Assembly: GCA_022072165.1 (NCBI GenBank)
Contig: JAJVIF010000001.1
Span: forward strand, 1,630,575-1,694,574
Origin: a bacterium
GTDB taxonomy: Bacteria > JAJVIF01
Reading direction: 5' to 3'
Length of the DNA stretch: 64,000 nt
Shown: piece after piece, positions 8,550 to 63,671 of the stretch
Numbering within the stretch: position 1 is the first letter of the stretch
Layout of the letters: each line of letters opens with the position of its first letter
Program-made: the position numbers and the translations under genes
The notes under the pieces: generated by a model
What the model saw: only the letters and a program-made list of their open reading frames with translations
The model's database searches: none
What the model was told of the DNA's origin: nothing

Positions 8550-8577
8550 TCGGGCAGGAGGAGTACCATCCCCGGCT

Positions 8578-10358: not shown

Positions 10359-10386
10359 AATCAGCGGGAAAGGACGGTCCTTCCGT

Positions 10387-43007: not shown

Positions 43008-43045
43008 GGAGAGACCATCCTTTCGGGTAAGCAAGCGAGAGCGGG

Positions 43046-45898: not shown

Positions 45899-46103
45899 GA
45901 GGGAGGTCCTCCAGGCAGGCAGTAACTACGAGAGAGTCGACGGCCAAGAACGGCCTGGCGAGCAGCCACCCCCTGATGGCGGGGGGATTGCCCCTATTGT
46001 TCCACACTCTGTCGTAGTCCGGCACGCCAGGACGCGGGACCGCCCCGGTGTACACTCACTTTCGGCTGATCACTCCGCTGCCACAAAGGAGCCCACTCGT
46101 TCC

Positions 46104-47492
46104 ATGACCGCTCCGGTCCCACCTGCTGACGCGACCCAAGCCCTCCCGCCCGACCTCCAGGGGATGCCTCCGGAGGAGCAGGCAGGCTATGCCGCGCTGC
46201 CAGAGAAGATGAAAGGGCAGCTGCTGAAGGAAATCGACCGCCAGATTTTCCTGATGCAACTCAACGAGGCCACGATTAATCCGGTAGCGGAGCTGCGGCC
46301 CAAGCTCCGGCGCGCTCTGCTGCTGAATCAGCCCCTCCGGGTGAAACTCGGCATCGACCCCTCCCGCCCCGACCTCCACCTGGGGCATACAGTCGTACTG
46401 AACAAGCTCCGGGACCTCCAGGAGCTCGGTCATCAGGCGGTCCTTATCATCGGCGACTTCACGGCCTCCATCGGCGACCCCTCCGGACGCTCCGCCGAAC
46501 GCCCAGCCCTGGACCTCGCGGAAACCAAAGCCCATGCCCAGACCTACTTTGAGCAGGCGGGGCTGGTCATCGACATGCAGCGGGCGGAGGTCCGCTACAA
46601 CTCCGAATGGCTGGAGCATCTCGACCTGACCCGGGTGTTGCAGCTGGCCCGGGTGACGACAGTCGCCCGGATGCTGGAGCGCGACGATTTCTCGAAGCGC
46701 TTCAGCGGCGAAAAGCCGATTTCCATCGCGGAGTTCCTCTATCCCCTGGCGCAGGGCTACGACTCCGTGATGGTGGAAGCGGATATCGAACTGGGCGGCA
46801 CCGACCAGACCTTCAATCTGCTCCTGGGGCGCGAAGTGCAGCGGGCCTGGGGACAGGAGCCGCAGATCACCATCACGTCCCCACTCCTGCCGGGTCTCGA
46901 TGGCAGCGAAAAGATGAGCAAGTCCAACGACAACTATGTCGCGCTGCTGGACTCCCCCTTCGAGAAGTTCTCCAAGGTCATGAGTATTCCGGATTCCGCC
47001 ATGCTCACCTGGTACCGGCTCCTGACCAAGCTGCTCCCGGAGCAGTTCGAAGAACTGGTCGAAGACCTCGCCAGTGGGGCCAAACATCCCAAAGAGGCAA
47101 AGCAGGACATCGCCCGGATGGTGGTCACCCGGTATCACTCCCTGGGGACCGCGGCGGACATGCAGGATCGGTGGGAGGCGCAGTTCTCCCGCAAAGAGAT
47201 CCCCACCGACGTCCCCCTCTTTAATCCCCCTGCGGACATCATGAAAGACGCTGCTCATGCCAAGCTGGTGGATCTGCTGGAGGCAGCGGGCCTGACCCCC
47301 AGCAAGAGCGAGGGACGTCGCCTGATCAAGCAAAAGGGCGTCAAAGTGGATGGCATCGCCATCGAGAACACCGAAGAGGTGCTGGTCCTGGACCGCGAGC
47401 GACTCTTGCAGATCGGGAGTCGCAAGTTCCTGCGGGTCCAGGCGACCGTGAAAGAAGGCGAAGGGGGCGGCGACGCCACCCCCCTCTTCTGA
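46104..47492 (+). CDS. tyrS: Tyrosyl-tRNA synthetase
   Basis: A 462-residue class I synthetase for tyrosine. LGIDPSRPDLHLGHTVVL carries the HIGH motif as HLGH, and SEKMSKSNDNYVALLD carries KMSKS. The tyrosine/tRNA region has GDFTASIGDPSGRSAERP and LGGTDQTFNLLLGR, as in the longer TyrZ-type enzymes. A C-terminal S4 RNA-binding domain begins near residue 395 (TPSKSEGRRLIKQKGVKVDG). About 60 residues precede the catalytic domain. The ATG at 46104 follows AAAGGAG. The gene sits in opposite orientation inside the lipoprotein array, between P3 and P4. Confidence 0.96.
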   Translation: MTAPVPPADATQALPPDLQGMPPEEQAGYAALPEKMKGQLLKEIDRQIFLMQLNEATINPVAELRPKLRRALLLNQPLRVKLGIDPSRPDLHLGHTVVLNKLRDLQELGHQAVLIIGDFTASIGDPSGRSAERPALDLAETKAHAQTYFEQAGLVIDMQRAEVRYNSEWLEHLDLTRVLQLARVTTVARMLERDDFSKRFSGEKPISIAEFLYPLAQGYDSVMVEADIELGGTDQTFNLLLGREVQRAWGQEPQITITSPLLPGLDGSEKMSKSNDNYVALLDSPFEKFSKVMSIPDSAMLTWYRLLTKLLPEQFEELVEDLASGAKHPKEAKQDIARMVVTRYHSLGTAADMQDRWEAQFSRKEIPTDVPLFNPPADIMKDAAHAKLVDLLEAAGLTPSKSEGRRLIKQKGVKVDGIAIENTEEVLVLDRERLLQIGSRKFLRVQATVKEGEGGGDATPLF

Positions 47493-47524
47493 GCTCGTGC
47501 AGATCGCGGGTCAGCACACCGGCC

Positions 47525-50500
47525 TCACCAGAGGCCGTTGCTGTTGATGCGGGAAACGAAGGCCCGATAGATGCCGCTGCCCGGGGTGGACTGGGTAAAG
47601 ACTCCCGGACCCGGCTCGAAATCTTCGGTGCCATCAAACTGTCCGGCGACCCGGCTGCTGCCATCCGGTGCAACCCCAACCCCGAAGGTGTAATCCACCC
47701 CGGTGCCGGTTGCCCAGACTGCGTCCCAGATATACGCTCCCGCGCTGCTGCGCTTACAGAGGAAGCTGCCGAAACTCCCCGGGGCCGTCCGCGGACCGCC
47801 ACCGAAGTTGACCGGTCCGGTATACCCCCCGGCGACCAGCACGTTATTGGCGCTGTCGACCGCGACGCCCCAGGTAGCCCCGCTGCTCATGAACCACCAG
47901 TCCCACTGGTAGACCCCGTTGGCGTCCACCTTCACACAGAACTGATGATCGTCCGGAGCCGTCGTGCTGCCGTAGTTACCATCCCCGAAGGACTTTCCAG
48001 CGAGGATGATGGCGTTGGTGGAATCAATCGCCAGACCCGCGCCCACTTCAGTCTCGCTGCCGCCATACATGTTGACCCACAGCGGGGTCCCCGACGAGTC
48101 CCACTTCATGATGAAGGCGTCGTCATCCAGCTTTGCCGGCTGGGCGCCGAACCCGAAGTCTGGAGTGTTCCGGGTATGCCCTACCACTACCACCGCATTC
48201 GTCGAGTCGAAGGACACATCACCATAAATGTTGATCCCTTGTTCGACATTCCAGACGGGGTCCCAGAGATAGTTGCCGTCGGTGTCGTACTTAACCACGA
48301 ACCGACGGTTGCTTGGGCGTGAGCCGCCGCCGAAGTTCGCGCTGAATGCGAGCTTGCCAGTAAATGCAATCTCAGTCCCGGCGGCATTGGTCCCCAGCCC
48401 CCAACCCCGGTCATCACCACCACTGCTCCAGACCTTGTCCCAGACTGGCACGCCCGTCGGACTCAATTTGACAAGGAAGGCATCACCCCCTGAGCCGCCT
48501 CCAAAGCTCCGGGGCGTCCCAGTGAAGTTGATGTTGCCGCCGAATGCGCCGGTGATGTAGCTGTTTCCCGCAGGATCGATGGTGATGGCCTGAATTTCAT
48601 CGAGGCCAATACTTCCAGTAGTCCAGTGCCACAACAGGGTGCCGTAGGGATCCACTTTGATGACCAGGAGGTCGCCATTGCCAGCGGATGTCACCGGTCC
48701 TGACCCAAAGTCGAACGTCCCCGAGAAGTACCCAGCAGCATAGGTGTTGCCAGCGGAATCGACCACCAGGTCCCAGAAACGACTGGTCCCGATGTCGCCG
48801 CCATAGGACCGGACCCAGCCGGGGATGAACTCCAGCACTTCGAAGTGCTCGTTGTTGCTCCCGACCGGCGGGGTGATGTCGACCGAGATAGTCCCATCAG
48901 AAATGCTCACAGCAAGGGTCCGATAGTCCGGCGCGGGGGGCGTAAAGGTGAAGGTCATGCCGCCATTGGTGCCGGAGTCAAAGGCCAGCGGCCCGGCAGT
49001 CGGAACCGGAATTGGGGCTGTGGTGAAGTCCGGCGTGCCGTCGTCGTTCCAGTCGAAGCTGAGCGTCACGTCATCACCGTCAGCGTCCGCCAGATTGCTG
49101 ACAGTGACCGCGACTACACCGCCGGTCGCGACTTGCGGGCTGGTCACCACAACAGTTGCCGAGGGGGGATCATTGGGGATGGCATTCATGTCGACCCGGA
49201 ACGCCTGGTACGTCACCGGCACCGGGACGTTGGTGGTTACCGGCTGCAGACTGGCATCCAGCGCGATCACCAACCCACCTGCGAGCTGGGTCTCCACATC
49301 GGTGACCCGCACCATGCCCGTGTATGTCCCCGGCGTTTGACCACTGGTCACCGTCTTGGTGACCGTCTTCTCGAAGAAAAGGGCATCGCCCGGCTGCCCT
49401 GAGTCGGGATCGACATCCCCGCCGTAGAGGGAATCATCGTCCAGCAGGGTCCCGGCATCCCAGAGGTCCACCGTACTGCTGTCGCCCAGCACGCCGGGAA
49501 TACAGACCGCCAGCGATGGCACGCCACTTTCGCCGGGGGCGACTTTCGTCACGTCCATGTCCTCAGCGAGATCCTGCTCGGTTGTCTCCATCGCCCGGGC
49601 ATCCCAGTCGATGACCCGGAAGCTGAACGTCTCTGCACTGATGGCGTTGGGCAGGAAGCCTCCGGTCTGATTGATGAGCACGATCCGCTCGACATCCAGA
49701 GCGCCGTGTGGCATCCGGTACGCAAAGAGATTCGCATCAGGGCTCGCTGGTGGCAGGCGGTTCCCCCGCTTCTCGACGCCGGTCCGCCCCCCGCGGGGAT
49801 CGTTGTACTTGGCGATAATCGCGACATCCATCGAGAATGTGTTCCCCGCCTGGAGTGCTGCCAGATCGAGTTGCAGAGTCCGGGATGACGCCTGCCCCTG
49901 ATGAAGCACGCCATAGCCTGTCCAGCCATCGTTCGTCGGACCGAACTCGGCCCGGGTCCAGCCATCGCCACCGAAGTTGCCGGTCGGATTCCCCCCGTTG
50001 GAGATGCCGACACGACTCCCGGTCGCCGTACTCTCGTCGACCAGGGTCTGATAGGGAAAGAGGTTCGCGTTGGTAGTGAGCCCGAGGAGCCCCGCCGGTG
50101 ACCAGTACGCATCGGCATTCCGGACCAGCGCGGTGTTCGCGATCCGGTTGCTGAAGTAGGTGTTGCCGGTCGAGGTCGCGACATCACTCAGAAACAGCAC
50201 CCGTCCCGCAACTCCCAGGTCCGCCCGATTCGTCCGCCCGTTGGGCGTCCCGGTGGGATTCGCCGGTGCCGGGAAGGGATGCCGGAGGGTCCAGTCGAGA
50301 TCGATGGTGGTTGCCGTGCGACGCACCCGGTCGACCCGGAAATCCTCGGCTCCCAGGAAGCTGCTGATGGGAAGCGCGTAGAGGTCATCATTCGCCTGCC
50401 CGGCCCGGGTCTCCCGCAGGCTGACAGTCGCCTGTAGCGCCGCTGGATCAAGCTCCAGCGTGTAGATCGCCATCGCACTTTCGGCGAGGAGCCCGACGGT

Positions 50501-50626
50501 GGTCACGGCTCCCAGCGATGCCGACCCACCGGCCAGATCCGGCGTCAGGGCGGTCGGGCCCGATTGTGTACAGGAGGTCAGGCCCAGGAGGAGGCCTGTG
50601 AGGAGGGGGTACGCGAAGCGGCGCAT
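47525..50626 (-). CDS. Large lipoprotein P4: N-module, PKD-like domain, seven-repeat SBBP propeller
   Basis: A 1033-residue lipoprotein with lipobox LTSC (Cys 19). The shared N-module has NRADLGVAGRVLFLSDVA, GISNGGNPTGNFGGDGW, GYGVLHQGQ, FAYRMPHGALDVERI, IDWDARAMETTEQDL, GESGVPSLAVCIPGVLGD and DDDSLYGGDVDPDSGQPGD. A PKD/cadherin-like domain of about 100 residues follows (NDPPSATVVVTSPQVATGG ... FDWNDDGTPDF). Seven SBBP-type repeats then run to the C terminus; the last blade has EDFEPGPG and the protein ends INSNGLW. AGGAG stands 6 bases before the ATG at 50626, with TACAAT about 80 bases upstream as a possible -10. It is convergent with tyrS; a short hairpin overlaps the final codons. Confidence 0.85.
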   Translation of the reverse strand: MRRFAYPLLTGLLLGLTSCTQSGPTALTPDLAGGSASLGAVTTVGLLAESAMAIYTLELDPAALQATVSLRETRAGQANDDLYALPISSFLGAEDFRVDRVRRTATTIDLDWTLRHPFPAPANPTGTPNGRTNRADLGVAGRVLFLSDVATSTGNTYFSNRIANTALVRNADAYWSPAGLLGLTTNANLFPYQTLVDESTATGSRVGISNGGNPTGNFGGDGWTRAEFGPTNDGWTGYGVLHQGQASSRTLQLDLAALQAGNTFSMDVAIIAKYNDPRGGRTGVEKRGNRLPPASPDANLFAYRMPHGALDVERIVLINQTGGFLPNAISAETFSFRVIDWDARAMETTEQDLAEDMDVTKVAPGESGVPSLAVCIPGVLGDSSTVDLWDAGTLLDDDSLYGGDVDPDSGQPGDALFFEKTVTKTVTSGQTPGTYTGMVRVTDVETQLAGGLVIALDASLQPVTTNVPVPVTYQAFRVDMNAIPNDPPSATVVVTSPQVATGGVVAVTVSNLADADGDDVTLSFDWNDDGTPDFTTAPIPVPTAGPLAFDSGTNGGMTFTFTPPAPDYRTLAVSISDGTISVDITPPVGSNNEHFEVLEFIPGWVRSYGGDIGTSRFWDLVVDSAGNTYAAGYFSGTFDFGSGPVTSAGNGDLLVIKVDPYGTLLWHWTTGSIGLDEIQAITIDPAGNSYITGAFGGNINFTGTPRSFGGGSGGDAFLVKLSPTGVPVWDKVWSSGGDDRGWGLGTNAAGTEIAFTGKLAFSANFGGGSRPSNRRFVVKYDTDGNYLWDPVWNVEQGINIYGDVSFDSTNAVVVVGHTRNTPDFGFGAQPAKLDDDAFIMKWDSSGTPLWVNMYGGSETEVGAGLAIDSTNAIILAGKSFGDGNYGSTTAPDDHQFCVKVDANGVYQWDWWFMSSGATWGVAVDSANNVLVAGGYTGPVNFGGGPRTAPGSFGSFLCKRSSAGAYIWDAVWATGTGVDYTFGVGVAPDGSSRVAGQFDGTEDFEPGPGVFTQSTPGSGIYRAFVSRINSNGLW

Positions 50627-50717
50627 AGCAGCTCCTATGTCTCGATGAACGGGTGAGGCGAAAGGGGAGCTCTGGCGATTTCCTGCCAGCCTCGACACCT
50701 TTTATTGTAGCAAGCCC

Positions 50718-50975
50718 TTAGTCCGGGACGGTTTCCGGCACCCCTGATTCTATGGGGACTTCCTGCGTTAAGACACCATTGAAGAAGAGCCGTGCGATGC
50801 CTGCCTGCAGGTCCACCTGCAGCGTCACCCCCGCCTGATCCTGGAGGGCATCCCGCTGAACTGCCAGCCACCTCTGCAGGGGGGCTTCATGCGCCGGTGC
50901 AACACCATCGCCAGCACCGCTGCAGCCGGATGTCACGAGCAGACTGGTGATGGCGAGCAGTGGCAGACGGTACAT
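50718..50975 (-). CDS. Small lipoprotein inside the P array
   Basis: An 85-residue lipoprotein: MYRLPLLAITSLLVTSGC gives a signal peptide with the lipidated Cys at residue 18. The mature part has a helix (LQRWLAVQRDALQDQAG) and a short beta segment (VTLQVDLQAGIARLFFNG). I recognise no family. I start at the ATG at 50975, which has GGAG 6 bases upstream, not at the ATG 12 bases further up. It is oriented with P4 and P5 and lies between them (91 bp from P4), so it may be co-transcribed with P4. Its place in the array suggests a related function. Confidence 0.65.
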   Translation of the reverse strand: MYRLPLLAITSLLVTSGCSGAGDGVAPAHEAPLQRWLAVQRDALQDQAGVTLQVDLQAGIARLFFNGVLTQEVPIESGVPETVPD

Positions 50976-51043
50976 GGTGGACTCCATGGGAAGCAGATGA
51001 GCACTAGTTTACCGCCGCTTGAGGACGAGAATTCACTTCTGGC

Positions 51044-51073
51044 AAAACGCCCCCCGGCGCGGGCCAGGGGGCG
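51044..51073 (-). terminator. Terminator of P5 (array-type)
   Basis: On the minus strand CGCCCCCTGGC and GCCGGGGGGCG pair with one mismatch, followed by TTTT. Nearly the same sequence is found at 54241-54271 and 57410-57439. Confidence 0.8.
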
Positions 51074-51098
51074 AGAGGATCATGTCAGCACGGTTGAG

Positions 51099-54080
51099 TT
51101 ACTGCCAGCCAGCGGGCGGAGTCCAGTAGAGACGGAACGTGCCGGCGGTGCCATTACTGCGACAGAACGTGTTGTTGTTCTGCGAGATGGCCCCCTTGAT
51201 GCCCGAAGCGCCGACAAAGTCGGACCCGTTGGTGACGACCAGCTCCGAGTTCATGATGTACTCGTCGTCCCAGACGCCTGCCTGGGTGTTCTGCCCAAGC
51301 ACGATGATCTGGACATCACTCTGGGCTCCGAGCTGACCGCCGGACGCGTTCAGGTTGTCGATGAAGATGTCACTTCCGATGCCCTGTACGGATGAGTCCG
51401 TGATGTTCAGCGGGGCCGAGGGATTCGGATTGCCGTTCAGCGACGCCGAGAAAGTCCCGTCGCATTCCACCCGGTAGACCCGACCATCACCAGGATTTGC
51501 ACCAGCGGCGACGCCATTCTCCTCAAGGATGTAGAACGCGCCGTTGTAGTCATCGATCGCCAGTTCGCTCACCTTGTGGTTCGCCGCCCCGGTCCCGGTG
51601 TTCGGCGGCAGACTGATGGGGGGGAGCTTCAGATCGAGGGGGAACGGTGCGGTCGTGTTCTCTGCATAGGTGGTGGCCCCGGTCTTTTCATAGAAGCGGA
51701 GCACCTGCTGCGTGTCGATCCCCCAGATGTTGTTGTCTTTATCCAGGGCAATCGCCACGAGCGGCGCGGCGGTCGTGATGATGTTGATGCTGGCATCTGT
51801 CACCAGCGTGACTCCGTCGAAGTCAAACCAGAGGATCTCCGCAGTGTTGCCGGAGTACGCCACCAACGGGGATCCGGAGATGGAGAAACTGCCGGCATTG
51901 CGTCGGGTGAAGATCACGCGGTTGTTGGAGTCGACCTCGATATCCGACACCTGGCGATTGAACAGGGTCCCGGTGGGATTGGTGTCGAGATTCGAGATGA
52001 TCTGCACCAGCGGCGGATCCGTCACGTCCACGCCAGGAATCAGGCGCACAAACTCGAAGAACAAGTTCGGCGATATCGTGCTGGTCCCCCGGAACTGCCC
52101 CAGCCAGCCGGCCGAGGCACCGGCGAGGGTCGCTCCCCGGAACGCCGCGTAGTTCGAGGGATTGCCGCCCCAGGCCGCCGGCCAGGTGGCCCCGGTCGCG
52201 TCTACTGGGAGAGCCCAGGCAGCGAGGTCCGTCACATCCGTCGGCCACGGAGCTGAGATGTCGGTCGCGGTCTTGGCCGGGACCGGCGAGGGGCACCGTG
52301 TCCCTGGCGGATTTACGGTAAACGTGGCCGACGGCAGCAGATTCACCGGCGGATTCACGCCGTCCGAAATCCGGCAGGGCACCGTGCGCGTGTCAGGAGC
52401 AGAACCACTGAACGTGTACGTAATGGGTGACGTGAAGTTGTTGTTCGCGGGATACGGACTGTTGATGGTCCCCGCGGAGACAAAGGTCCCGGTGTTGCTC
52501 CAGTCCACAAACACTTCGACCGGGTCCGCATCGGGATCCGCCACTGACGTCACATTGATCGTGACGCTGTTGCCGGAGCTGATGCTGGCGGTCGTGGTGG
52601 CATAAGCCGCGCTGGGAGGCAGGTTAACCGTTCCCATCGTGACCGTGAAGGACTGATAGGTGACCGGCAGCGGCGTCACAGTCAGGGGCGTGAGACTGCC
52701 ATCCAGCCCCACCACCAGTCCGGTCTCAGGATCCGTCGCCCGGACCATTCCGGTGTAGATCCCCGCCGACTGGCCCGAGCCAGCGGCTTTCGTCACCGTT
52801 TTGCCGTAATACAGCGCATCACCCGGACGGCCCGAGTCCTGCGCTGCATCGCCTCCGTAGGCGCTGTCGTCATCCTGCAAAGTGGATCCCGTGTCCCAGT
52901 CGTCGGTGAACGACGCATTCCCGAGCACGCCCGGGATGCAGACTGCAAGCGTCGGGGCACCACTCTCGCCCTGGGACACATTGGTGAAGCTGGCATCCAG
53001 CGACAGGTCGGACTCCGTCGTCTCAGTCGCCCGGGCATCCCAGTCCACCACGTGGAAGCGCAGGTCCATGGCGGACACAGCATTCGGCCCAAACGCCCCA
53101 TCGAAGGGAAGGACCGCGATGCTGGCGACATCCAGCGCTCCATGCGGCATCCGGTACGCGAAGAGGCTGGCATCGGGACTCGCCGGTGGGAGCCGGTTCG
53201 CCCGCTTTTGTGTCGCATTGATGCCACCCCGGGGATCCGGGTACTTCGCGATCACGGCAGCATCGAGGCTGAAGCCTCCGCCCAGCGCGCTCTTGTTCAG
53301 ACTTAGCGTGTTCTGCGCTTTTTGGCCACCATGCAGGAAGCCGAAGCCGGTCCAGCCATCGTTGTTCGCGCCGAACTCCGACCGGGTCCAGCCATCGCTG
53401 CCGAAGTTCCCCGTGACATCCCCGCCGTTGGAGACACCGATACGGGCATCGGCCTGCTCATCGACCAGGAGCCGGTACGGGAACGTGTTCGCCGTGCCCG
53501 TAGTGCTGATCAGCCCTCCCGGACTGTAATAGGCGTTGGGATTCGCCACGGTGGACGTGTTGGCCACCCGGTCGGTGAAGTAGGTGTTGCCGGATGCCGG
53601 GGCATCGACCACGAACAGCACCATGCCGGTAATGCTCAGGTCGGCGCGATTGGTCGACCCGTTGGGCGCTCCGGAAGGATTGTTCGGCGCGGGGAACGGA
53701 TGCTCCACCAGGTATTCCACATCAACCGTGGTGGCGGTCGACGTGATGCCGGTCACCCGGAACGAATCGGGCCGCAGGAAGTTGTCGATGGAGAGCAGAT
53801 AGAGATCATCGTTCGCCTGAACCCGTCGCGTCTCCTTGAGTCGCGATGTCGCCTGCAGCGTGGCCGGATCAACATCGATGGTGTAGATCGCGAGGGCACT
53901 GGTGGCAGTCCCACCCGTGATCACCGGAGTTCCGAGGCTCCCACTCGCTGTGACGCTCGCAGGGGCGAGTCCTTCAGCGGAGGGGATAGTTCCTGGCTGC
54001 AGGGGATTAGAACTCCCGCTACTGCAGCCTAATGCGGCCAGGAGGGAAGTTCCCGCCAGCCACCACAGAGATGCACGCAT
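51099..54080 (-). CDS. Large lipoprotein P5: N-module, PKD-like domain, class 2 C-terminal domain
   Basis: A 993-residue lipoprotein with lipobox LAALGC (Cys 19). The N-module is close to those of P7 and P8: ANTFPYRLLVDEQADARIGVSNGG, GFGFLHGGQ, AYRMPHGALDVASI, VDWDARATETTESDL, CIPGVLGNA and DDDSAYGGDAAQDSGRPGD. A PKD-like domain follows (SVADPDADPVEVFVDW). The C-terminal domain of about 400 residues is not SBBP. It has VSDIEVDSNNRVIFTRR, ILWFDFDGVTLVTDASI, KDNNIWGIDTQQVLRFY and YRVECDGT, shared with P6, P8 and more weakly P1, and ends TPPAGWQ. GGAGG lies 7 bases before the ATG at 54080. TATACT with TTGTTT 16 bases upstream (54217-54244) is a possible promoter. Confidence 0.85.
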   Translation of the reverse strand: MRASLWWLAGTSLLAALGCSSGSSNPLQPGTIPSAEGLAPASVTASGSLGTPVITGGTATSALAIYTIDVDPATLQATSRLKETRRVQANDDLYLLSIDNFLRPDSFRVTGITSTATTVDVEYLVEHPFPAPNNPSGAPNGSTNRADLSITGMVLFVVDAPASGNTYFTDRVANTSTVANPNAYYSPGGLISTTGTANTFPYRLLVDEQADARIGVSNGGDVTGNFGSDGWTRSEFGANNDGWTGFGFLHGGQKAQNTLSLNKSALGGGFSLDAAVIAKYPDPRGGINATQKRANRLPPASPDASLFAYRMPHGALDVASIAVLPFDGAFGPNAVSAMDLRFHVVDWDARATETTESDLSLDASFTNVSQGESGAPTLAVCIPGVLGNASFTDDWDTGSTLQDDDSAYGGDAAQDSGRPGDALYYGKTVTKAAGSGQSAGIYTGMVRATDPETGLVVGLDGSLTPLTVTPLPVTYQSFTVTMGTVNLPPSAAYATTTASISSGNSVTINVTSVADPDADPVEVFVDWSNTGTFVSAGTINSPYPANNNFTSPITYTFSGSAPDTRTVPCRISDGVNPPVNLLPSATFTVNPPGTRCPSPVPAKTATDISAPWPTDVTDLAAWALPVDATGATWPAAWGGNPSNYAAFRGATLAGASAGWLGQFRGTSTISPNLFFEFVRLIPGVDVTDPPLVQIISNLDTNPTGTLFNRQVSDIEVDSNNRVIFTRRNAGSFSISGSPLVAYSGNTAEILWFDFDGVTLVTDASINIITTAAPLVAIALDKDNNIWGIDTQQVLRFYEKTGATTYAENTTAPFPLDLKLPPISLPPNTGTGAANHKVSELAIDDYNGAFYILEENGVAAGANPGDGRVYRVECDGTFSASLNGNPNPSAPLNITDSSVQGIGSDIFIDNLNASGGQLGAQSDVQIIVLGQNTQAGVWDDEYIMNSELVVTNGSDFVGASGIKGAISQNNNTFCRSNGTAGTFRLYWTPPAGWQ

Positions 54081-54216
54081 ACACTGACCTCCTGCTATGC
54101 GAGGGCGCATGGTGAAATACGGTGTCGCCCGGCAATACGCCCAATACCCCCCTGCAACAGGGATACTCAGTACGCGGAGCCGTGGCCACTCCTCGGTTGT
54201 ACGGAAGAGTGGTGAA

Positions 54217-54244
54217 AGTATACGCCGTTATGGGTCACAAACAA
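54217..54244 (-). promoter_or_regulatory. Candidate P5 promoter
   Basis: TTGTTT (54239-54244), 16 bases, TATACT (54217-54222), read on the minus strand. It starts inside the T-run of the preceding terminator and would give a leader of about 130 bases. Confidence 0.35.
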
Positions 54245-54271
54245 ACGCCCCCCGGCACATGCCAGGGGGCG
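54241..54271 (-). terminator. Terminator of P6 (array-type)
   Basis: CGCCCCCTGGCA and TGCCGGGGGGCG on the minus strand, followed by TTTGTTTG. It matches the terminators of P5 and P7. Confidence 0.8.
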
Positions 54272-54296
54272 GGAGGTTCATTCCAGCGGTGATGAA

Positions 54297-57271
54297 CTAC
54301 TGCCAGCCGGCTGGGGGCACCCCCCACACCCGGAAAGTCCTGATACCGGACCCCGATCGGCTGATGAGCCAGTTGTTCTGCGTGTTCACGGAGACCAGAT
54401 ACGGGACTGCCGAGTTGACCCCGGCCGTCTTCAGCAGTTGGGTGGTGAGAATCTGATGATCTTGCCCGTGGTTTGAAGCATTACTCATGTACCCCATCAG
54501 GATGATCTGCGCATCCCCCGGAGCACCGATGAGACTCCCCGTAGAGTCCAGCTCATCCAGCGTGATGTCGTGCGGACGGGTCAGGGTGGTCCAGTCCCCG
54601 ACTTGCAGCACCAGCGGATTCGGGTTGCTGGTGGTGGGGATGGGGTTGTTGAGGCTGCCATCGCACTCAATCCGGAAAATGCGATCAACCCCGGTTGTAT
54701 CCTCGGTCACGATGAACGTCGCTCCGTTGTACCGGCTCTGCACAAAGTCGTGGACATACTGCGTCCCAACCGCGATGTTGTAGGGCCCCGCCGCCAGGTT
54801 CAGCGGGAAAGGCGCCGTCATGTCTTCGGCGTAGTTCGCCCCCCGGGTATAGCGACGCAGGATGTTCTGGTTATCGATGAGCAGCAGGTCATCGTTCAGT
54901 CCCACGGCCAGCGCGACCACCCGGTTGGTCGTGGCGACCGTGTTCATCTGGGCATCCGTCGCCAGTGTCGCACCACCATCGGTGTCGAACCAGACAAAGC
55001 CTGTCGAACCGGTCAGGTAGAAACCGTTGTTCGTCGCACCGTTGGTCGGGCCGATCAGTCCTGTGTTCAGGACGCCGGCATCGCGACGGGCAAAGAAGAC
55101 CCGGTTCAGGCTATCAACCTCGATCTGGTGTACTTGCCGCGCTGTCGTGGGGTCACTCCCCAGAGTCGCCGGGGCATTGGTGAGCTGGATCGAAGAGACA
55201 CCACTGGCCAGGGTCGTACTGTCGTTGGCGTAAATGCGATGGATTTCGTAAGTCGGCGTCGTCGTAATCCGCTGCGTGATCCACCCCGCATTCGTGTTGG
55301 GAGCAGGTGAATTGAAGGTCGGGTTGTGGAAGGCCGCGTAGTCGTAGTCCACCTGTCCGGACGCCATGTCAGCAAAGGAGGGCGAGAGTGTCTCGCCAGC
55401 CAGGATCCCCCACCCGACTCCGAAAGTTGTGGGGTTTGTCCAGGGGGCACCACAACCAGCCGTATTCTCGATGACCGTGAAACTCAGGTTGGGATGGGTC
55501 ACCGGCGCAGCGATGTTATCGGTGTAATGCACCCGCACCTGACGATTGTCGGGATTCGTTCCGCTCCAGACATAGGTGATGGGCGAGGTGAAGTTCACTG
55601 CCGGACCACCCGCCCCGTTGAGCATGTTCCCGGTCTCGCCGACATCGGCGAAGTCGTTGTCGTTGTTCCAGTCGATCAGCACCTCGATGGGATCCCCTTC
55701 GGGGTCGCTATACCCGGTCGCCTGGATGGTGATGGTGCCGCCGTCGAGGATGGTGCTGTTGAGCAGGGCGAACGATGCCACCGGCGGGCTGCTCAGCCCA
55801 TTGATCTGCACCGTAAACGCCTGGAATGTCACCGGGGCCGGGACCGGACTCGCCAGCGTGAGGTCCGGGGCCAGCGCGAAATGCCAGCTGCTCGTGTCGG
55901 CCGCCGCTTCCGGATCGATCGCCATCACCAGACCCGTCGCCGGACCTTCTGTCTGCCCCTCGTCAGGCTGTTTGTCAGGGTCCGGGTGTAATAGAGGCTG
56001 TCGCCCGGCTCGCCAGTATCGAGAGCGGCATCCCCACCCCACAGGGTGTCGTCATCCTGCAGGTCTGTCCCGTTGTCCCAGTTGGCCACCCCGGTACCCA
56101 GAATCGCCGGGATACTGACGGCCAGGGTTGGAGCACCGCTCTCCCCTGCGGCAACATTGGTCAGCACGGGATCAGTGGCCAGGTCAGCTTCCACGGTCTC
56201 CGCTACCCAGGCATCCCAGTCGTCCACATGGAAGTGCAGATCGGCCGCCGAAATCTGATTCACCACGAACCCGCTGCCGGTTTCTCCGAGGAAGGTGATG
56301 CGCTCGACATCCAGCGCCCCATGCGGCATCCGGTACGCGAACGCGTTGATGTCGACCGGCGATTTCGGGAGCCGGTTCGCCCGCTTCGTCGCAGCATTGA
56401 GCCCGACGCGCGGATCGTTGTACTTCGCCAGCACAACCGCATCGAAACTCACCGGCCCACCCAGCGCACTCAGGGCGAGTTGCAGGGTGTTGATCGCGGC
56501 CTGCCCCTGATGCAGGACCCCATAGCCGGTCCAGCCATTCCGCTCCGGACCGATATTGTCCTGTTGCCAGCCGCCGGTCCCGGGGGTGTAGTTCCCGGTG
56601 GGCACACCGCCGTTGGAAATCCCGACACGAGCCCCATCTGGACCCCGTTCATCCACCAGCACGCGATACGGGAACGTGTTCGCGGTGGTCGTCAGCCCGG
56701 GAAGCAGGCCGTCGGGACGGTAATACCCATCCGCGTTCACCACCGTACTGGTGTTGGCCACCACATTGGTGACCCCCGCCGCACCAGCGGCAGCGGTCTG
56801 GAAGTACGTGTTGCCGCTGGCGCTGGGAACATCCATCAGGAAACAGACACGTCCGGCTACGCCCAGGTCCGCGCGATTCGCCGCAGTGGCAGGACCCGCG
56901 AGATTCGTGGGGGCCGCAAAGGGATGCGTCACCTGGTAGGTGATGTCCAGTGTGGTGGCAGAACGACTGATGCCCAGAATCTTCAGCGAGTCCCGTCGCA
57001 GGAAATTGCTGATGGACAGATCGTACACATCGTCGTTGGCCTGAGCGGCATGGTCACTGACCAGTGCGACTGTCCCACTCAGCGTGGCCGGATCAATCGC
57101 GATGGTGTACCGCCCGGCCTGCTGCTGTGCGAGCAGCTCGTTGACCAGCACGGGCAGAGCGCTGCTGGAGGGATCGGACTGGACTTGTGTGACGGAGGGG
57201 CTGGGCTGCTGGCAGCCCGCCAGCAGTGACGTCACCAGGAGACCTGGCAACAGCGGGAGCGAGAGGCGCAT
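54297..57271 (-). pseudogene. Large lipoprotein P6, broken by a one-base frameshift
   Basis: The N-module (lipobox SLLAGC, Cys 20; NRADLGVAGRVCFLMDVP, GYGVLHQGQ, FAYRMPHGALDVERI, LAVSIPAILGTG, DDDTLWGGDAALDTGEPGD) is in one frame and stops at 55925. The rest (PKD-like domain SYSDPEGDPIEVLIDW-type, class 2 C-terminal domain, FRIECDGS, ending VPPAGWQ) continues in another frame to 54297. The switch lies at about 55956-55962. There the paralogs read TSGQTPGTYTG or GSGQVAGDYTG, but here the G-run after ACGA seems one base short. Restoring one base gives a 991-residue protein like the others. Total length 2975 is one base short of a multiple of three. It could be a real mutation, a phase-variable tract or a sequencing error. 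The start is the ATG at 57271 with AAAGGA. Confidence 0.85.
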
Positions 57272-57409
57272 GTGCGTGTTCCTTTGGCGAGAGTCAGACA
57301 CCTTGTGCCCCCCGCAATAGCGGAGGTCACGCAACAGGTGTCTGGGGATAACACTAGGATGCCGCAGGGCTGGTCGTTCCGCAACATGAGGTATCCCACA
57401 GCAGGCAAA

Positions 57410-57439
57410 CAAACGCCCCCCGGCGCAGGCCAGGGGGCG
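57410..57439 (-). terminator. Terminator of P7 (array-type)
   Basis: CGCCCCCTGGC and GCCGGGGGGCG on the minus strand, then GTTTGTTTG. Third copy of the array terminator. Confidence 0.8.
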
Positions 57440-57463
57440 GGAAAAGCTCGTGCAGGCGGCAGG

Positions 57464-60400
57464 CTACGGCAGCGGGCAGACCCGGCTGTAGTAGCGACTC
57501 GCCAGTTCGGGCAGACCGATCCAGTTCTTGCCATCGCGAGCCACCAGCCCGATTTCGGTGGGGCTCTTGATCAGGATCGAGCAGCTCGTGCCCAGGAAGA
57601 TCGGAGGCGCACCGCAGGGGAAGCCGGTCGCGACGTTGGCGTCATCGACGACGGCGACCTGGAAGTCCGCAGCGCTGGTCGGGTTGTTGGTCGTGGCATA
57701 GGCCAGCCGGAAGTCAGAGGTCGGCATCGAACCGAAGGAAACGCAGGACGCGCCTGTATCCAGTGGATTGGTGTAGGCAATCACCAGCCGTCCGTTGTGG
57801 TTCTTGATGTCGATATCGGCGAACTGCACCGTACCCATCGCACCATTGGTCGTGGTGGCAAAGGAGATCGGAGCATTGAAGTCTGCCGGGGCGTTCGGGG
57901 CAGCCACATTCGCCAGGTAGAGATTCACACCGATAACCGGCGTGGCGCTCTGGTTGTAGCAGGCGACCGCGAGGCGCGGGCCAGACCCGGAGTTGTACTG
58001 GGTGAGCGAGGCGTTGGAACCATCACTCGCAGGCGCGTTGATCGCGAAGGGGATCGTCCAGTCTGCCGCGCTCGCAGGCGTGAGGGTGGTCGCCCGGGCG
58101 AACTTCACATCCACGCCGGTTGAGTCACGGAAGACAACCGCCAGGCGAGGACTGACGCCATCATCGAAGCTGTGGATATCGCTCCAGAACCCCAGGCTGT
58201 TCGCGTTGTCTTCCAGCACATACGAGTTCCAGTTGCCAGTAGCGGAAGGGGTCCCCGTATTGGCGATGGCAACACGAATGGAGGCTGCCGCACCGGCATC
58301 ACGGAAGCTGACTGCCGGGACGCCGTTGTGCATCGTGGCACCAAAGGTGAGATGAGCGGTCGTCAGGGCGTCGATCTGGTGCGGCACGGGCCAGTCACCT
58401 GACGAAGTCGGGTTGGTGTTGTTCGCGACCACGCACATCAGGCGGTTCAGGGTGTCATCTTTGTAAATGACCACCGGACGTCCGCCAGCATCCAGCAACT
58501 CGATACCGGTGTCCGTGCTGCCAGCGACTTCCGCGGGGAAGTTCGTGATTTCGTGATTGGTCCAGTCGGTCGTGGCGGTAGGATTCGGAGTCGTCGCCCG
58601 CACCATCCGGACCGAAATCGGCAGACCCGCGGTCCCCTGCGTCACGACATGCACGAAGGCAGGATTCCCACCGATGAGGCCGGCGGAGTTGTAGTACCCG
58701 CCCCGACCATCAATCGAGGATGTCGTATCCGGGAAGTGCTCGCTCCAGGTCGCGGTCACGGTGTAGCTGAAGGGGAAGTTCACCGGCGTGCCGCAGCCAT
58801 TGTCGATGGTCACGGAGCCGTTGTATGTCCCGGCCGCACCCAGGGTCACGGACGGGGTCGCGGATGAGGAACTGTTCGGGGTCGTCCCACCGCCGAAGTC
58901 CCAGCCATAGGTCACGGCCGGATCGCCCGTGAAAGCGACGCTGAAGTTGGCGTTCTGACCGGTGCAGCCGATGCTGCCGGAGGGCGACACCACGCCACCA
59001 CTCGGCGGCGTACAGCTGAGCCCCATCGTCACTGTGAAGGCCTGGTAGGTCACCGGCAGGGGAGTCGTGGTGAGGGGGGTCAGATTGGAATCCAGCCCGA
59101 CCCACAGACCACTCTGGACATCCGACGCCCGGACCATGCCGGTGTAGTCCCCGGCGACCTGCCCGGAACCGGCAGCCTTCGTCACACTCTTCGTGTAGTA
59201 GAGCGCATCGCCGGGACGTCCGGAATCCTGCGCCGCATCGCCACCGAACGCGCTGTCATCATCCTGAACCGTGGTCCCAGGATCCCAGTCATCGGTGAAC
59301 GTCGCATCTCCCAGCACGCCGGGGATACAGACGGAGAGTGACGGCAGGCCGGCTTCGCCCTGCGCCACATTCGTGAAGCTGGCATCGTTCGCCAGGTCCG
59401 CTTCCGCCGTCTCGGTCGCCCGGGCATCCCAGTCGGCGACCCGGAAGTTCATGTCGACCGCCGAAATAGCGTTCGGCGTAAAGGGACCACTGGTGCCCAG
59501 CACTTCGATGCTCGCGACATCCAGTGCACCATGCGGCATCCGGTACGCGAAGAGGCTCGCATCCGGGCTCGCGGGAGGCAGGCGATTGGCCTTCTTCTGC
59601 GCCGGAGTCGCGCCACCGCGCGGGTCGTTGTAGACCGCGACAATCGCCACGTCCAGGCTCGCGCCACCAGACAGAGCACTCTTGTTCAGGCTCAGCGTGT
59701 TCGCGACGACCTGACCCTGATGCATGACACCGTACCCGGTCCAGCCAATGTTGCCGGTCCCAAACTCGGCACGTGTCCAGCCATCGCTCCCGAAGTTCCC
59801 GGTCACATCGCCGCCATTGCTGATGCCGAGGGGGACCCAGGGAGACACACGGGGGTCCAGCGTCTCATCCACCAGCTGGCGATACGGGAACGTGTTGGCA
59901 GTGCCGCTGACGCTCAGCAGCCCGCCAGGGCTGAAGTACGCGTCCGCGTTCGCCACCAGTGAGGTGTTCGCCACGCGATCGGTGAAGTACGTGTTGCCAC
60001 TGGCCGGGGCATCCGCCAGGACCATGACCATCCCTGCCACGCCGAGGTCGGCACGGTTCGTCGAGCCGTTCGGGGTCCCGGTGGGATTGTTCGGCGCCGG
60101 GAAGGGATGCTCGACCGTGTAGGTCACATCGATCGTGGTGGCCGTCGCCGCCAGTGCCCGGACGCGGAACGAGTCCGCCCGCAGGAAGCTGTCGATCGAG
60201 AGCAGATACAGGTCGTCATTGGCCTGTCCCTGACGGGTTTCCTTCAGCCGGCTGGTCGCCTGCAGGCTCTCCGGATCCACCTCGAGGGTGTAGATCGCCA
60301 GCGCACTGGCCGACAGATCGCCATTAATGAATGGCGTACCGAGGGAGCCACCGGCATTCTGAGCGGCCTGCGGCAGACCCGCCGGATCGCCGCCGGTCGC

Positions 60401-60490
60401 GGCTGGCATAAGCGGGGTCTTGCCCCCCCCAGAGCAGCCAAGGGTAGCGAGCAGCGCCGAAGCCGCCAGCCACCAGGTAAGATTGCGCAT
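57464..60490 (-). CDS. Large lipoprotein P7: N-module, PKD domain, six-repeat class 3 domain
   Basis: A 1008-residue lipoprotein that begins MRNLTWWLAASALLATLGC, identical to P8 up to the Cys at 19. The N-module has NRADLGVAGMVMVLADAP, GYGVMHQGQ, AYRMPHGALDVASIEVL, ADWDARATETAEADL, CIPGVLGDA and DDDSAFGGDAAQDSGRPGD. A PKD domain follows (VTYGWDFGGGTTPN). The C-terminal domain is unlike any other in the array: six repeats of about 60 residues with the pattern [VR]xxANTxxPTxxxDW, for example VRMVRATTPNPTATTDW and FRLAYATTNNPTSAADF, which looks like another propeller. It ends YYSRVCPLP, without the PPxGWQ or GLW ending. GGAGG precedes the ATG at 60490 by 5 bases. A promoter is predicted about 165 bases upstream. 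Confidence 0.85.
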   Translation of the reverse strand: MRNLTWWLAASALLATLGCSGGGKTPLMPAATGGDPAGLPQAAQNAGGSLGTPFINGDLSASALAIYTLEVDPESLQATSRLKETRQGQANDDLYLLSIDSFLRADSFRVRALAATATTIDVTYTVEHPFPAPNNPTGTPNGSTNRADLGVAGMVMVLADAPASGNTYFTDRVANTSLVANADAYFSPGGLLSVSGTANTFPYRQLVDETLDPRVSPWVPLGISNGGDVTGNFGSDGWTRAEFGTGNIGWTGYGVMHQGQVVANTLSLNKSALSGGASLDVAIVAVYNDPRGGATPAQKKANRLPPASPDASLFAYRMPHGALDVASIEVLGTSGPFTPNAISAVDMNFRVADWDARATETAEADLANDASFTNVAQGEAGLPSLSVCIPGVLGDATFTDDWDPGTTVQDDDSAFGGDAAQDSGRPGDALYYTKSVTKAAGSGQVAGDYTGMVRASDVQSGLWVGLDSNLTPLTTTPLPVTYQAFTVTMGLSCTPPSGGVVSPSGSIGCTGQNANFSVAFTGDPAVTYGWDFGGGTTPNSSSSATPSVTLGAAGTYNGSVTIDNGCGTPVNFPFSYTVTATWSEHFPDTTSSIDGRGGYYNSAGLIGGNPAFVHVVTQGTAGLPISVRMVRATTPNPTATTDWTNHEITNFPAEVAGSTDTGIELLDAGGRPVVIYKDDTLNRLMCVVANNTNPTSSGDWPVPHQIDALTTAHLTFGATMHNGVPAVSFRDAGAAASIRVAIANTGTPSATGNWNSYVLEDNANSLGFWSDIHSFDDGVSPRLAVVFRDSTGVDVKFARATTLTPASAADWTIPFAINAPASDGSNASLTQYNSGSGPRLAVACYNQSATPVIGVNLYLANVAAPNAPADFNAPISFATTTNGAMGTVQFADIDIKNHNGRLVIAYTNPLDTGASCVSFGSMPTSDFRLAYATTNNPTSAADFQVAVVDDANVATGFPCGAPPIFLGTSCSILIKSPTEIGLVARDGKNWIGLPELASRYYSRVCPLP

Positions 60491-60653
60491 GATGTCCTCC
60501 TGGGACTGAACTGACAAAAGTGAGAAGAGCGAGGATGTCGCCAGCTCCTGCAGCAGGTCTGACGATGTGTGCTTGCTCAACCTCCGGCGCAGACGCTCCC
60601 ACCGCCCGACGGTGCTTTGTAAAAGGCGTCGCGATGCCGGGGTAACAGCCCGC

Positions 60654-60683
60654 ATTATCACTGAAATTGCCGGGTAAACGCAA
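60654..60683 (-). promoter_or_regulatory. Candidate P7 promoter
   Basis: TTGCGT (60678-60683), 18 bases, GATAAT (60654-60659) followed by GC, on the minus strand. It predicts a leader of about 155 bases and has the same form as the P8 promoter candidate. Confidence 0.5.
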
Positions 60684-60700
60684 TCCGCCAGCCAGGTGAC

Positions 60701-60735
60701 AACAACATCGCAGCCCCCGTCGGAACGGGGGCTGC
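60701..60735 (-). terminator. Terminator of P8
   Basis: GCAGCCCCCGT, loop, ACGGGGGCTGC: an 11-bp perfect stem, followed on the minus strand by GATGTTGTTG, a weak T-rich exit. It lies 42 bases after the P8 stop. Confidence 0.75.
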
Positions 60736-60776
60736 GGCAAGGTTGGTGGTTCGTAAGAACCGGGGTTATGGAGTGG

Positions 60777-63671
60777 TTACTGCCAGCCGGTGGGCGGGAA
60801 GTTCCCGGCGGTGCCGTGGATGGCGATAATCCCGGTCCCGAAGGAGGGGCCCATCGCGGCATAGAGCCAGTTGTTCAGTCCCACAGAGCCGTTGTTCATG
60901 CCGATGTCGCAGCAGCCGAACGGATCCCAGTTCTGGGACGTGGACTGCGTCAAATCGGCGGTGAAGATCCGGACTTCCGGCTCGGGATCCGTGTTCGGGA
61001 TCATCCGGTTGCCATAGACCACGATCTGCCGGTCGGCGTTGCTCAGTGGCGAGATGGCCGCGCCGGTGGTGTCGCGGGAGTCGATGTGAATGTCACCGTA
61101 CTGGTTCTGAGTGGTGGAGTAATTCAGGGCGAACCCTGCACTCCGCGTAGAGGAAGAACCATCGCAGGCGACCTTGTAGATGTACGCGTTGCTGGCAGCC
61201 GCTTCCTGGCTCTGCGCCAGGATATAGAGGAAGCCACTGTAGGCGTTCACTTCAAAGTCATGGACCTTGATGTTTGTCGCCGGCGTGCCGCCCGTCGGGT
61301 TCATCGGCTGGGAGATGGTCTTCAGGTCGATGGGGAAGGGGCAGCTGGTTTCTTCCGCGTAGGAACCACCAGTCAGCTTGTGGAGGATGTTGTTCTGGTC
61401 GATGTACCAGACATTCCCTGCCGCGTCCACATCCATCGCGATCACCCGGTTCGCACCGGTCGAGATGGTGGTGTGACTCGCGTAGGGAATGACTCCAGTC
61501 AGATCAAAGTACCGAATGTTCGCCGCCCCGCCAGTCGCACCGTAGTTGTACAGCGGGTTATTGCGACCCGTGCCGATCTGCGAGGTGACATATGTCGAGT
61601 AGAAGACGCGGTTGGTCGCACTGACATCAATCTGGTTTACCTGGCTCGTAGCCGGGAATCCTGAAGTGACCGTAAAAATAGAGGCGCCAGCGTTGGGGGC
61701 CGCTGCGGTCGCTACAAACACCACCAGGTCAGCCGTCGCGGCGGCTTTCTGCTGGACGATCACGCCACCGTTGGGATGCACGATCCCTGACTTCATCCCT
61801 TCCATGTCCTGCGGGCAGAAGGTCGCGCTGTAGTTGTAGAACCCGCCCACGCCGGTGTAGCCCAGGCCCGAGGTCAGCGGAGTCGCCACGAATGGAGCAG
61901 TCGGGCAGTTCTGCAGCACCTGAATAGACTGTGTGGGAGTGAGCTGGGTGAAGGTGGTGCCATCATCCAGCCGCACCGGGACCTGGCGGTTGTCCGGGGC
62001 AGGACCATTGAAGGTGAACGTGATGGGCGAGGCAAGCGGCACCGTCGCCGGATACGGCGAGTTGACGGTCGTCGCCAGCGTGTAGGTGCCATCGTTGTCC
62101 CAGTCCACGAGGATGTCGATGGGGTCGCCATCGTCATCGTTCGGGGCCGTGACCGTCAGGCCAAACGCGCAGTTCTCCGCGACCGTTGCCGCGTCCATCG
62201 CGTAAGTCCCGGTGGGGGCGGCATTGTCGGGGAGCATTTCCACGGTGAACGCCTGATAGGTGACGGGATCCGGGGTGCTCGGCAGGGGAGCGAGGGACTC
62301 ATTGAGTCCGATGGTCAGGCCGGTCTGCGGATCGGTCGCGCGGACCATCCCCTTGTAGAACCCAGCTACCTGACCGGAGCCAGCGAGCTTGGTGACCAGG
62401 GTGCTGTAGTACAGCGCATCGCCAGGGCGCCCGCTGTCCTCATCCACATCGCCGCCGACGCCGGAGTCGTCATCGACCACGGTCGAGGCATCCGCCGTCA
62501 CCGTCGCATCACCCAGGACATCCGGGATGCAGACATCGAGGGTCGGGGTGCCCGACTCGCCCTGCGCCACGTTGGTGAAGCTGGAGTCGTTCGCCAGATC
62601 CGCCTCGGCGGACTCGGTCGCCCGGGCATCCCAGTCTTCCACATGGAAGCTCATGGTCTGCGCGGAGATCGTGTTGGCGATGAAGCCAGCGGTTTCGGGC
62701 AGGACGGTGATCTTGCCGGCATCCAGGGCTCCGTGGGGCATCCGATAGGCGAAGAGGCTCGCATCCGGACTTGCCGGAGGCAGGCGATTGGCCTTCTTCT
62801 GCGCCGCCGTCGCACCACCACGCGGATCGTTGTAGACCGCGATGATGGAGACATCGAGGCTGAATCCACCCGTGAGGGCCGCTTTATTCAGGCTCATGGT
62901 GTTGGTGACTGACTGGCCCTGGTGCATGACGCCATAGCCGGTCCAGCCGTTGTTGCCCGTACCGAACTCACTCCGGGTCCAGCCATCGCTGCCGAAGTTG
63001 CCAGTGACATCGCCGCCGTTGGACACGCCCACGCGGGGATCCAGCGACTCATCCACGAGCTGCTTGTACGGGTAGGTGTTGGCGGTGCCGGAGGTCGTCA
63101 GCAGCCCGCCGGGGCTGAAGTACGCATCGGCGTTCGCCACCAGGTCCGTATTCGCCACGCGGTCGGTGAAGTAGGTGTTCCCACTCGCCGGCGCATCGGC
63201 CATGATCAGGACCATCCCCGCCACGCCAAGGTCGGCGCGGTTGGTGGACCCGTTGGGGGTCCCGGTGGGGTTATTCGGGGCCGGGAACGGATGCTTGACC
63301 ACATAGCCCAGGTCGATGGTGGTCGCCGTGGCCGTAATGCCCGTGATCGCGAAGGACCCGGCATTCAGGAAGCTGTCGATCGAGAGCAGATACAGATCGT
63401 CGTTGGCCGCGACCGTCCGGGTCTCCTTGAGCCGGCTGGTCGCCTGCAGCGAGACCGGATCAATATCCAGCGTGTAGATCGCCAGCGCAGCGGTCGCCAG
63501 GTCCCCATTGATAAACGGGGTACCGAGCGCACCACTGGCGCCCAGAGCAGCCTGGGGCAGTGTGGCGGAATCCGGTGCGGTCTGCGGAGCCGTCACCGGA
63601 GAGCCACTCCCCGAGCACCCAAGCGTGGCGAGCAGCGCGGATGCCGCCAGCCACCAGGTGAGATTGCGCAT
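60777..63671 (-). CDS. Large lipoprotein P8: N-module, PKD-like domain, class 2 C-terminal domain
   Basis: A 964-residue lipoprotein. Signal peptide 1-18, lipidated Cys 19. The N-module spans about 55-478: NRADLGVAGM at 144-153, GYGVMHQGQ at 245-253, NDPRGG at 281-286, AYRMPHGALD at 308-317, EDWDARATESAEADL at 345-359, GESGTPTLDVCIPDVLGDA at 371-389, DDDSGVGGDVDEDSGRPGD at 400-418, TYQAFTVEM at 471-479. A PKD-like domain (about 483-587) and the class 2 domain (about 600-964) follow, the latter with VNQIDVSATNRVFYST, NVWYIDQNNILHKL and YKVACDGS, ending PPTGWQ. The upstream AGGAGGACATC is the same as for P7, so P7 and P8 are recent duplicates at the 5' end. Exposed or periplasm-facing location is inferred; no enzyme motif is seen. 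Confidence 0.87.
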   Translation of the reverse strand: MRNLTWWLAASALLATLGCSGSGSPVTAPQTAPDSATLPQAALGASGALGTPFINGDLATAALAIYTLDIDPVSLQATSRLKETRTVAANDDLYLLSIDSFLNAGSFAITGITATATTIDLGYVVKHPFPAPNNPTGTPNGSTNRADLGVAGMVLIMADAPASGNTYFTDRVANTDLVANADAYFSPGGLLTTSGTANTYPYKQLVDESLDPRVGVSNGGDVTGNFGSDGWTRSEFGTGNNGWTGYGVMHQGQSVTNTMSLNKAALTGGFSLDVSIIAVYNDPRGGATAAQKKANRLPPASPDASLFAYRMPHGALDAGKITVLPETAGFIANTISAQTMSFHVEDWDARATESAEADLANDSSFTNVAQGESGTPTLDVCIPDVLGDATVTADASTVVDDDSGVGGDVDEDSGRPGDALYYSTLVTKLAGSGQVAGFYKGMVRATDPQTGLTIGLNESLAPLPSTPDPVTYQAFTVEMLPDNAAPTGTYAMDAATVAENCAFGLTVTAPNDDDGDPIDILVDWDNDGTYTLATTVNSPYPATVPLASPITFTFNGPAPDNRQVPVRLDDGTTFTQLTPTQSIQVLQNCPTAPFVATPLTSGLGYTGVGGFYNYSATFCPQDMEGMKSGIVHPNGGVIVQQKAAATADLVVFVATAAAPNAGASIFTVTSGFPATSQVNQIDVSATNRVFYSTYVTSQIGTGRNNPLYNYGATGGAANIRYFDLTGVIPYASHTTISTGANRVIAMDVDAAGNVWYIDQNNILHKLTGGSYAEETSCPFPIDLKTISQPMNPTGGTPATNIKVHDFEVNAYSGFLYILAQSQEAAASNAYIYKVACDGSSSTRSAGFALNYSTTQNQYGDIHIDSRDTTGAAISPLSNADRQIVVYGNRMIPNTDPEPEVRIFTADLTQSTSQNWDPFGCCDIGMNNGSVGLNNWLYAAMGPSFGTGIIAIHGTAGNFPPTGWQ

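What the first reader, a model, noticed from the sequence alone, without database searches (positions are those of the whole stretch)
55940..55980. P6 is split by one missing base in a G-run
The N-module frame and the C-terminal frame overlap at 55925-56042 and join perfectly in the paralog alignment if one base is restored near 55956-55962. The gap falls in an AGGGG tract. The gene may be inactive, phase-variable by slippage, or mis-sequenced.
Basis: seen in the sequence. Interest (0 to 1): 0.55.

Follow-up and report, generated by a model that had tools for sequence, protein, structure and literature searches.

The report
Freshly broken copy in lipoprotein family
One member of a very large family of predicted surface lipoproteins in an unnamed bacterium has its reading frame broken in the stored sequence, most likely because that copy has recently died, although an assembly error cannot be ruled out without the raw reads.

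Summary
The break is real in the stored sequence. P6 (57271..54297, minus strand) is one gene cut into two overlapping frames; paralog matches and a coding model put the switch at about 55949-55963. The G-run reading is not supported: runs of four are ordinary (560 G/C runs in the window, 31 in P6), and 386 runs of 6-9 lie in in-frame coding sequence. The break is not at the module boundary but inside the N-module, before its last three predicted strands, so the truncated product is probably not a working short form. P6 otherwise looks constrained, so the lesion is recent or an assembly error. P6 belongs to a family with 80 matches in a 3.26-Mb genome. Of 78 family loci examined, three others are broken: one frameshift, one in-frame stop, one multiply decayed; two pairs of near-identical young duplicates coexist. 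Best reading: birth and death of gene copies, P6 being a young casualty. Reads and sister strains were not available. The break is ordinary; the unannotated family is the more interesting part.

The parts
55963..57271 (-). P6 upstream part in the N-frame: lipoprotein signal (lipobox LLAGC) and most of the N-module, from the likely ATG start at 57271
   Evidence: ORF; alignment A1; keeps 28 of 28 invariant and 26 of 28 near-invariant columns
55949..55963 (-). interval of the frame break, beside a four-G run
   Evidence: paralog pieces meet at 55949/55961; coding model switches at 55962/55963; alignments
55925..55962 (-). out-of-frame tail of the N-frame up to its stop; the stop TGA (55927-55925) overlaps an ATG of the C-frame (55925-55923)
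54297..55961 (-). P6 downstream part in the C-frame: last strands of the N-module, then a GEVED-like stretch (below cut-off) and further C-terminal sequence, ending PPAGWQ
   Evidence: paralog matches; GEVED 18.1 bits, cut-off 24.4; codon signature retained
40203..63671 (-). cluster of seven family members containing P6; the other six have open frames of 943 to 1132 aa; a plus-strand gene (45741-47492) lies between the second and third from the low end

Best explanation
P6 is a recently inactivated copy (young pseudogene) of a large lineage-specific family of predicted surface lipoproteins. The ancestral gene encoded a lipidated N-module joined to C-terminal domains. A single frame-changing event cut it. 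Translation from the normal start now ends at 55925, leaving a lipoprotein without the last three predicted strands of its own module and without its C-terminal part, so it probably misfolds and is degraded. Shown: the two frames, the place of the break, intact paralogs, other broken copies in the genome, near-identical young duplicates. Inferred: that the event exists in the living cell, that the truncated protein does not function, and that redundancy among about 80 copies made the loss tolerable.
For: The break is seen by homology and by a coding model. Intact homologues run through the junction in one frame (14 aligned). P6 keeps 28 of 28 invariant columns, and its C-frame codon-position differences match those of intact pairs, so it was constrained until recently. 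Of 78 family loci examined (77 ORFs plus one decayed locus), 4 are broken: P6; L031 at about 1719 (frameshift); L034 (in-frame TAA inside the conserved NTFP-QLL stretch); L035 7340-10141 (four frame changes). Two pairs of young duplicates at 99.9% and 98.5% DNA identity show turnover. The break falls before the last three strands of the modelled module.
Against: A fresh lesion and an assembly error look the same without reads. Single frameshifts are not significantly concentrated in the family: two in 223 kb of family ORFs against none recognised in 245 kb of control coding sequence. The intact codon signature that makes the lesion look young also fits no lesion at all. No relative of the same genus or family was available.
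Confidence: 0.57

Rival explanations
1. Assembly or base-calling error: the gene is whole in the cell and one base was lost in the consensus.
For: G000 is a four-contig, 3.26-Mb assembly. P6 shows no other damage. One or two wrong indels in about half a megabase of coding sequence would be enough.
Against: No gene broken across frames recognised in 15 control stretches with 244,607 coding bases (by eye). 386 runs of 6-9 identical bases lie inside in-frame coding segments, where homopolymer errors would strike first. Other broken copies exist, one by a stop codon in a conserved stretch and one with four frame changes.
Confidence: 0.37
2. Phase-variable locus: slippage in the AGGGG tract switches P6 on and off.
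For: Predicted surface lipoprotein in a multi-copy family; the break adjoins a G-run. In a Neisseria study one poly-C tract did alternate between C5 and C6 between strains (PMC5084427, passage), so short tracts can vary.
Against: Only four G, against 5119 runs of four inside coding segments and 186 AGGGG in the window on both strands. In the same study homopolymers of 8 or more were the ones predominantly variable. Longer runs in P6 (seven of five, three of six) are not at the break. The 240 bases around L031's break show no run over five.
Confidence: 0.03
3. Functional split: the break yields a short lipoprotein, and the downstream part is made by programmed frameshifting or by reinitiation at the TGATG overlap at 55927-55923.
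For: The N-frame stop overlaps an ATG of the C-frame, an arrangement that can allow coupled reinitiation (recalled). Short family members with open frames of 461-581 aa exist.
Against: Four of the short members, read by eye, end in the stretch that truncated P6 lacks (L041 and three in L013). A separately started C-part would have no export signal. I saw no canonical X-XXY-YYZ heptamer at the junction (by eye sequence). The 14 intact paralogs aligned show no frame change there.
Confidence: 0.03

Closest known systems
Recent frameshift pseudogenes in expanded bacterial gene families (birth-and-death evolution; recalled concept)
   Same: Single lesion, constrained sequence on both sides, intact paralogs, other broken copies including a decayed one, young near-identical duplicates
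   Different: Reality of the lesion in the cell is unproven; the family's N-module has no Pfam, NCBIfam or PDB sequence match
Homopolymer phase-variable (contingency) genes as in Neisseria meningitidis (PMC5084427, passages read)
   Same: Frame break beside a homopolymer in a predicted surface protein
   Different: Tract of four, shorter than those predominantly found variable; no length variation could be looked for; longer runs in the same genome undisturbed
SBBP beta-propeller lipoproteins, LipL53 family (NF047494)
   Same: Residues 552-900 of window paralog 43034..40206 match profile positions 98-437 of 466, E 1.1e-24
   Different: 87 bits against a cut-off of 400, so not a member; the two P6 pieces have no match to it

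Membership tests
Young frameshift pseudogene | Gene interrupted by a frame change relative to intact homologues | tested here: met
Young frameshift pseudogene | Loss of an essential part of the product | tested here: inconclusive
   Predicted loss of the last three strands of the module and all downstream sequence; function not assayed
Young frameshift pseudogene | Lesion present in the organism's DNA, not only in the assembly | not testable with these tools
   No reads; no sister strain: nearest held genomes are in other families of the class
Phase-variable homopolymer locus | Long repeat tract at the break | tested here: not met
   Four G only; 5119 runs of four inside coding segments, 560 G/C runs of four in the window
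Phase-variable homopolymer locus | Tract length differs between cells or strains | not testable with these tools
   No reads and no related strain
Programmed -1 frameshift gene | Canonical slippery heptamer at the junction | tested here: not met
   Read by eye in the junction sequence; no program used
Programmed -1 frameshift gene | Frame arrangement conserved in homologues | tested here: not met
   14 intact paralogs aligned are single open frames
The P6 lipoprotein family of this genome | Shared N-module with its invariant residues | tested here: met
LipL53-like SBBP lipoprotein (NF047494) | Score above the curated cut-off | tested here: not met
   The two P6 pieces: 0 families; the one match among 6 proteins scanned has 87 of 400 bits

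The most novel reading that the evidence does not exclude
The break is a working change: P6 has become a new short lipoprotein, with its former C-terminal part translated by reinitiation at the TGATG overlap, so the family makes new protein forms by frame breaks as well as by duplication and C-terminal replacement.
Probability: 0.03. Interest if true: 0.5.

Novelty: new member of a known kind. Interest (0 to 1): 0.2.

Why it matters
On its own the break is an ordinary one-copy lesion. It matters as one data point in the turnover of a family whose examined ORFs make up about 7% of a 3.26-Mb genome (223 kb), which also has 73 profile matches in one relative of the same class and an N-module unnamed in Pfam, NCBIfam and PDB sequences. 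Comparing live, dying and dead copies could show which copies the cell needs. It also warns against reading short G-runs as switches in GC-rich genomes.

Tried and rejected
G-run slippage was rejected on run statistics. The idea that the break leaves a natural N-module-only product was rejected because four short natural members, read by eye, carry the end of the module that truncated P6 lacks, and the predicted fold has three more strands there.

The hope of finding orthologues in named genomes failed. Genome contigs gave no relative with P6's N-frame (6 pattern stretches, none confirmed) or with alignment A1 (81 stretches, none confirmed). Viral contigs with A1 gave none (64 stretches, none confirmed). 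Of 40 genomes in the relatives search, 2 matched, G000 itself and G002. Of 4 genomes held for the phylum, 4 matched the profile, but hits outside G000 are too distant for a base-level comparison. The organism is therefore not named here.

Loci L013 and L026, first suspected because of stops or short frames, turned out to be open short members; L026 is not among the 77 ORFs counted. Ten frame switches were flagged. Four are P6, L031 (1720) and two in L035; the other six were read as pairs of different neighbouring genes and dropped. The same judgement for the switches listed is by eye on translated ends, not by family search, and some pairs of unfamiliar proteins (for example L064 8055-12394) could not be named. 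alone missed L031's break, so a break with no paralog match on both sides could be missed in other loci too. In one search a third near-identical pair (L050) was dropped because it is the same DNA read in two overlapping ORFs.

Foldseek listed no PDB match at E 0.001 or better. VIA-align's three best rows have Z 6.5, rmsd 2.5-3.7 and 97-113 aligned residues; the first two span model residues 291-468 and 295-465, the second and third being transglutaminases. The tool says that Z under 8 may mean only a common arrangement. Literature searches found no paper holding all terms; one search listed four papers that were not opened; of the six listed one was read in passages.

Full report
What was checked. 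The finding says that gene P6 is split by one missing base near 55956-55962. On the minus strand the N-frame runs from an upstream TTG at 57412 (likely true start ATG 57271, giving MRLSLPLLPGLLVTSLLAGC) to a stop at 55925. The C-frame ORF runs from GTG 56042 to a stop at 54297. The overlap is as stated. With the closest intact paralog (L049:4178-7171, 998 aa) as query, tblastn gives two colinear pieces in different frames, 57223-55949 and 55961-54300, that meet at paralog residues 458-461; 31 of 77 family queries give such a pair. In alignments to 14 intact paralogs the N-frame matches up to its residues 482-488 (...TRTLTNSLT), and the C-frame resumes at its residues 23-29 (EGQTEGPATGLVMAIDPE) in 13 of 14 and at 67 in one, against paralog stretches such as TNSQTSGQTAGTVTGMVWVRD. 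A three-periodic Markov coding model puts the switch at 55962/55963; it uses no homology, but its 110 training ORFs of 1500 nt or more can include both P6 frames. The break in the stored sequence is certain.

Where the break lies in the protein. It is inside the N-module. Four short family members (L041, 497 aa; L013, 482, 461 and 555 aa, stop to stop) end, read by eye, in a stretch equivalent to P6's PAPVTFQAFTVQI, which in P6 lies in the C-frame about 53 residues beyond the break. An AlphaFold2 model of the module of the window paralog at 50572-49169 (19 aligned family modules, mean pLDDT 78.4, pTM 0.84) has strands at 415-424, 435-438 and 453-462; by my arithmetic the equivalent of the break is near model residue 410. 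VIA-align's best rows, at Z 6.5, are beta-sandwich domains over model residues 291-468 and 295-465; under Z 8 this may be only a common arrangement. The truncated product would lack these strands. It was not folded or assayed.

Is the G-run special? No. The run is four G. The window has 560 G/C runs of exactly four and 214 longer ones, and P6 alone has 31 of four, seven of five and three of six. In 529,918 bases of coding segments there are 5119 runs of four, and 386 of six to nine (30 bases at each segment end were left out, which removes the run at P6's break itself). In a meningococcal study, homopolymers of 8 or more were the ones predominantly variable, but one poly-C tract did alternate between C5 and C6, C5 being below that study's cut-off (PMC5084427, passages read). 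I saw no canonical -1 slippery heptamer (by eye).

How old is the lesion? P6's N-frame keeps 28 of 28 columns that are invariant in the other 23 modules and 26 of 28 near-invariant ones. In the C-frame its differences from intact paralogs show the same codon-position pattern as intact pairs: the mean of positions 1 and 2 over position 3 is 0.61-0.81 for P6 against 7 paralogs and 0.67-0.83 for 18 intact pairs, and GC3 is 0.78 against 0.76-0.82 in four intact members. At the 33-47% protein identity of these C-part comparisons the test sees only long neglect. The lesion is recent or absent from the cell.

Assembly error or mutation? In 15 control stretches (300 kb, 244,607 coding bases) I recognised no gene broken across two frames; the listed switches read as different neighbouring genes, judged by eye. 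The family has 77 ORFs in the fetched sequence (223,176 bases) plus one decayed locus. Of these 78 loci 4 are broken. They are P6; L031, where a 714-aa N-frame passes to a downstream frame of 572 aa at about 1719; L034, with an in-frame TAA within the conserved NTFP-QLL stretch and open sequence on both sides; and L035 7340-10141, with four frame changes. Two single frameshifts in the family against none in controls of similar size is not a significant difference. The copy with an in-frame stop and the decayed copy, which a homopolymer error would not readily produce, suggest that copies do die in this lineage. I weigh true lesion against assembly error at about 0.57 to 0.37.

The family. One search finds 80 matches to P6's N-frame in the 3.26-Mb genome. 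A 24-module profile finds 126 matches there, 73 in G002, 4 in G001 and 2 in G003, the only other genomes held of the phylum. The N-module has no match in Pfam, NCBIfam or PDB sequences. Among C-terminal parts, P6 and 63671..60777 have GEVED matches below the cut-off, 50698..47525 has an SBBP match above it (22.2 against 20.5 bits), and 43034..40206 resembles NF047494 below its cut-off. Two pairs are young duplicates: L024, 99.9% over 2225 nt of ORFs of 3714 and 3624 nt; L029, 98.5% over 1516 nt of ORFs of 3051 and 3645 nt. No further match of 150 nt or more at 88% was listed in either pair, so the front parts were copied more recently than the rest, or the rest was replaced. Duplication, C-terminal replacement and loss fit birth-and-death evolution, and P6 fits as a recent loss.

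What would change this. Reads, an independent assembly or sister strains would decide between a true lesion and an error; none was available. The functional-split reading (short lipoprotein plus reinitiation at the TGATG overlap) is not excluded but has little in its favour.

Noticed in passing
G000 whole genome; window 40203-63671 and 26000-28801: A lipoprotein family with 80 close and 126 profile matches in one 3.26-Mb genome; its 77 examined ORFs make up about 7% of the bases. The N-module is unknown to Pfam, NCBIfam and PDB sequences; 73 profile matches in one relative of the class.
   Followed up: partly
L031:74-3720 (G000:C1 1864073-1867719): Second family member whose N-frame and downstream frame are separated by a frame change at about 1719.
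   Followed up: partly
L034:1625-1627 (G000:C2 381924-381926): Family member with an in-frame TAA inside the conserved NTFP-QLL stretch, otherwise open on both sides.
   Followed up: partly
L035:7340-10141 (G000:C2 418839-421640): Decayed family member with four frame changes and a stop.
   Followed up: partly
L024:826-4539 and 6774-10397; L029:602-4246 and 4504-7554: Near-identical front parts (99.9% over 2225 nt; 98.5% over 1516 nt) on ORFs with no further listed match at 88% or more, suggesting duplication with C-terminal replacement or gene conversion.
   Followed up: no
window 40206-43034: C-terminal half of this paralog resembles the SBBP beta-propeller lipoprotein LipL53 family (87 bits, cut-off 400).
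   Followed up: no
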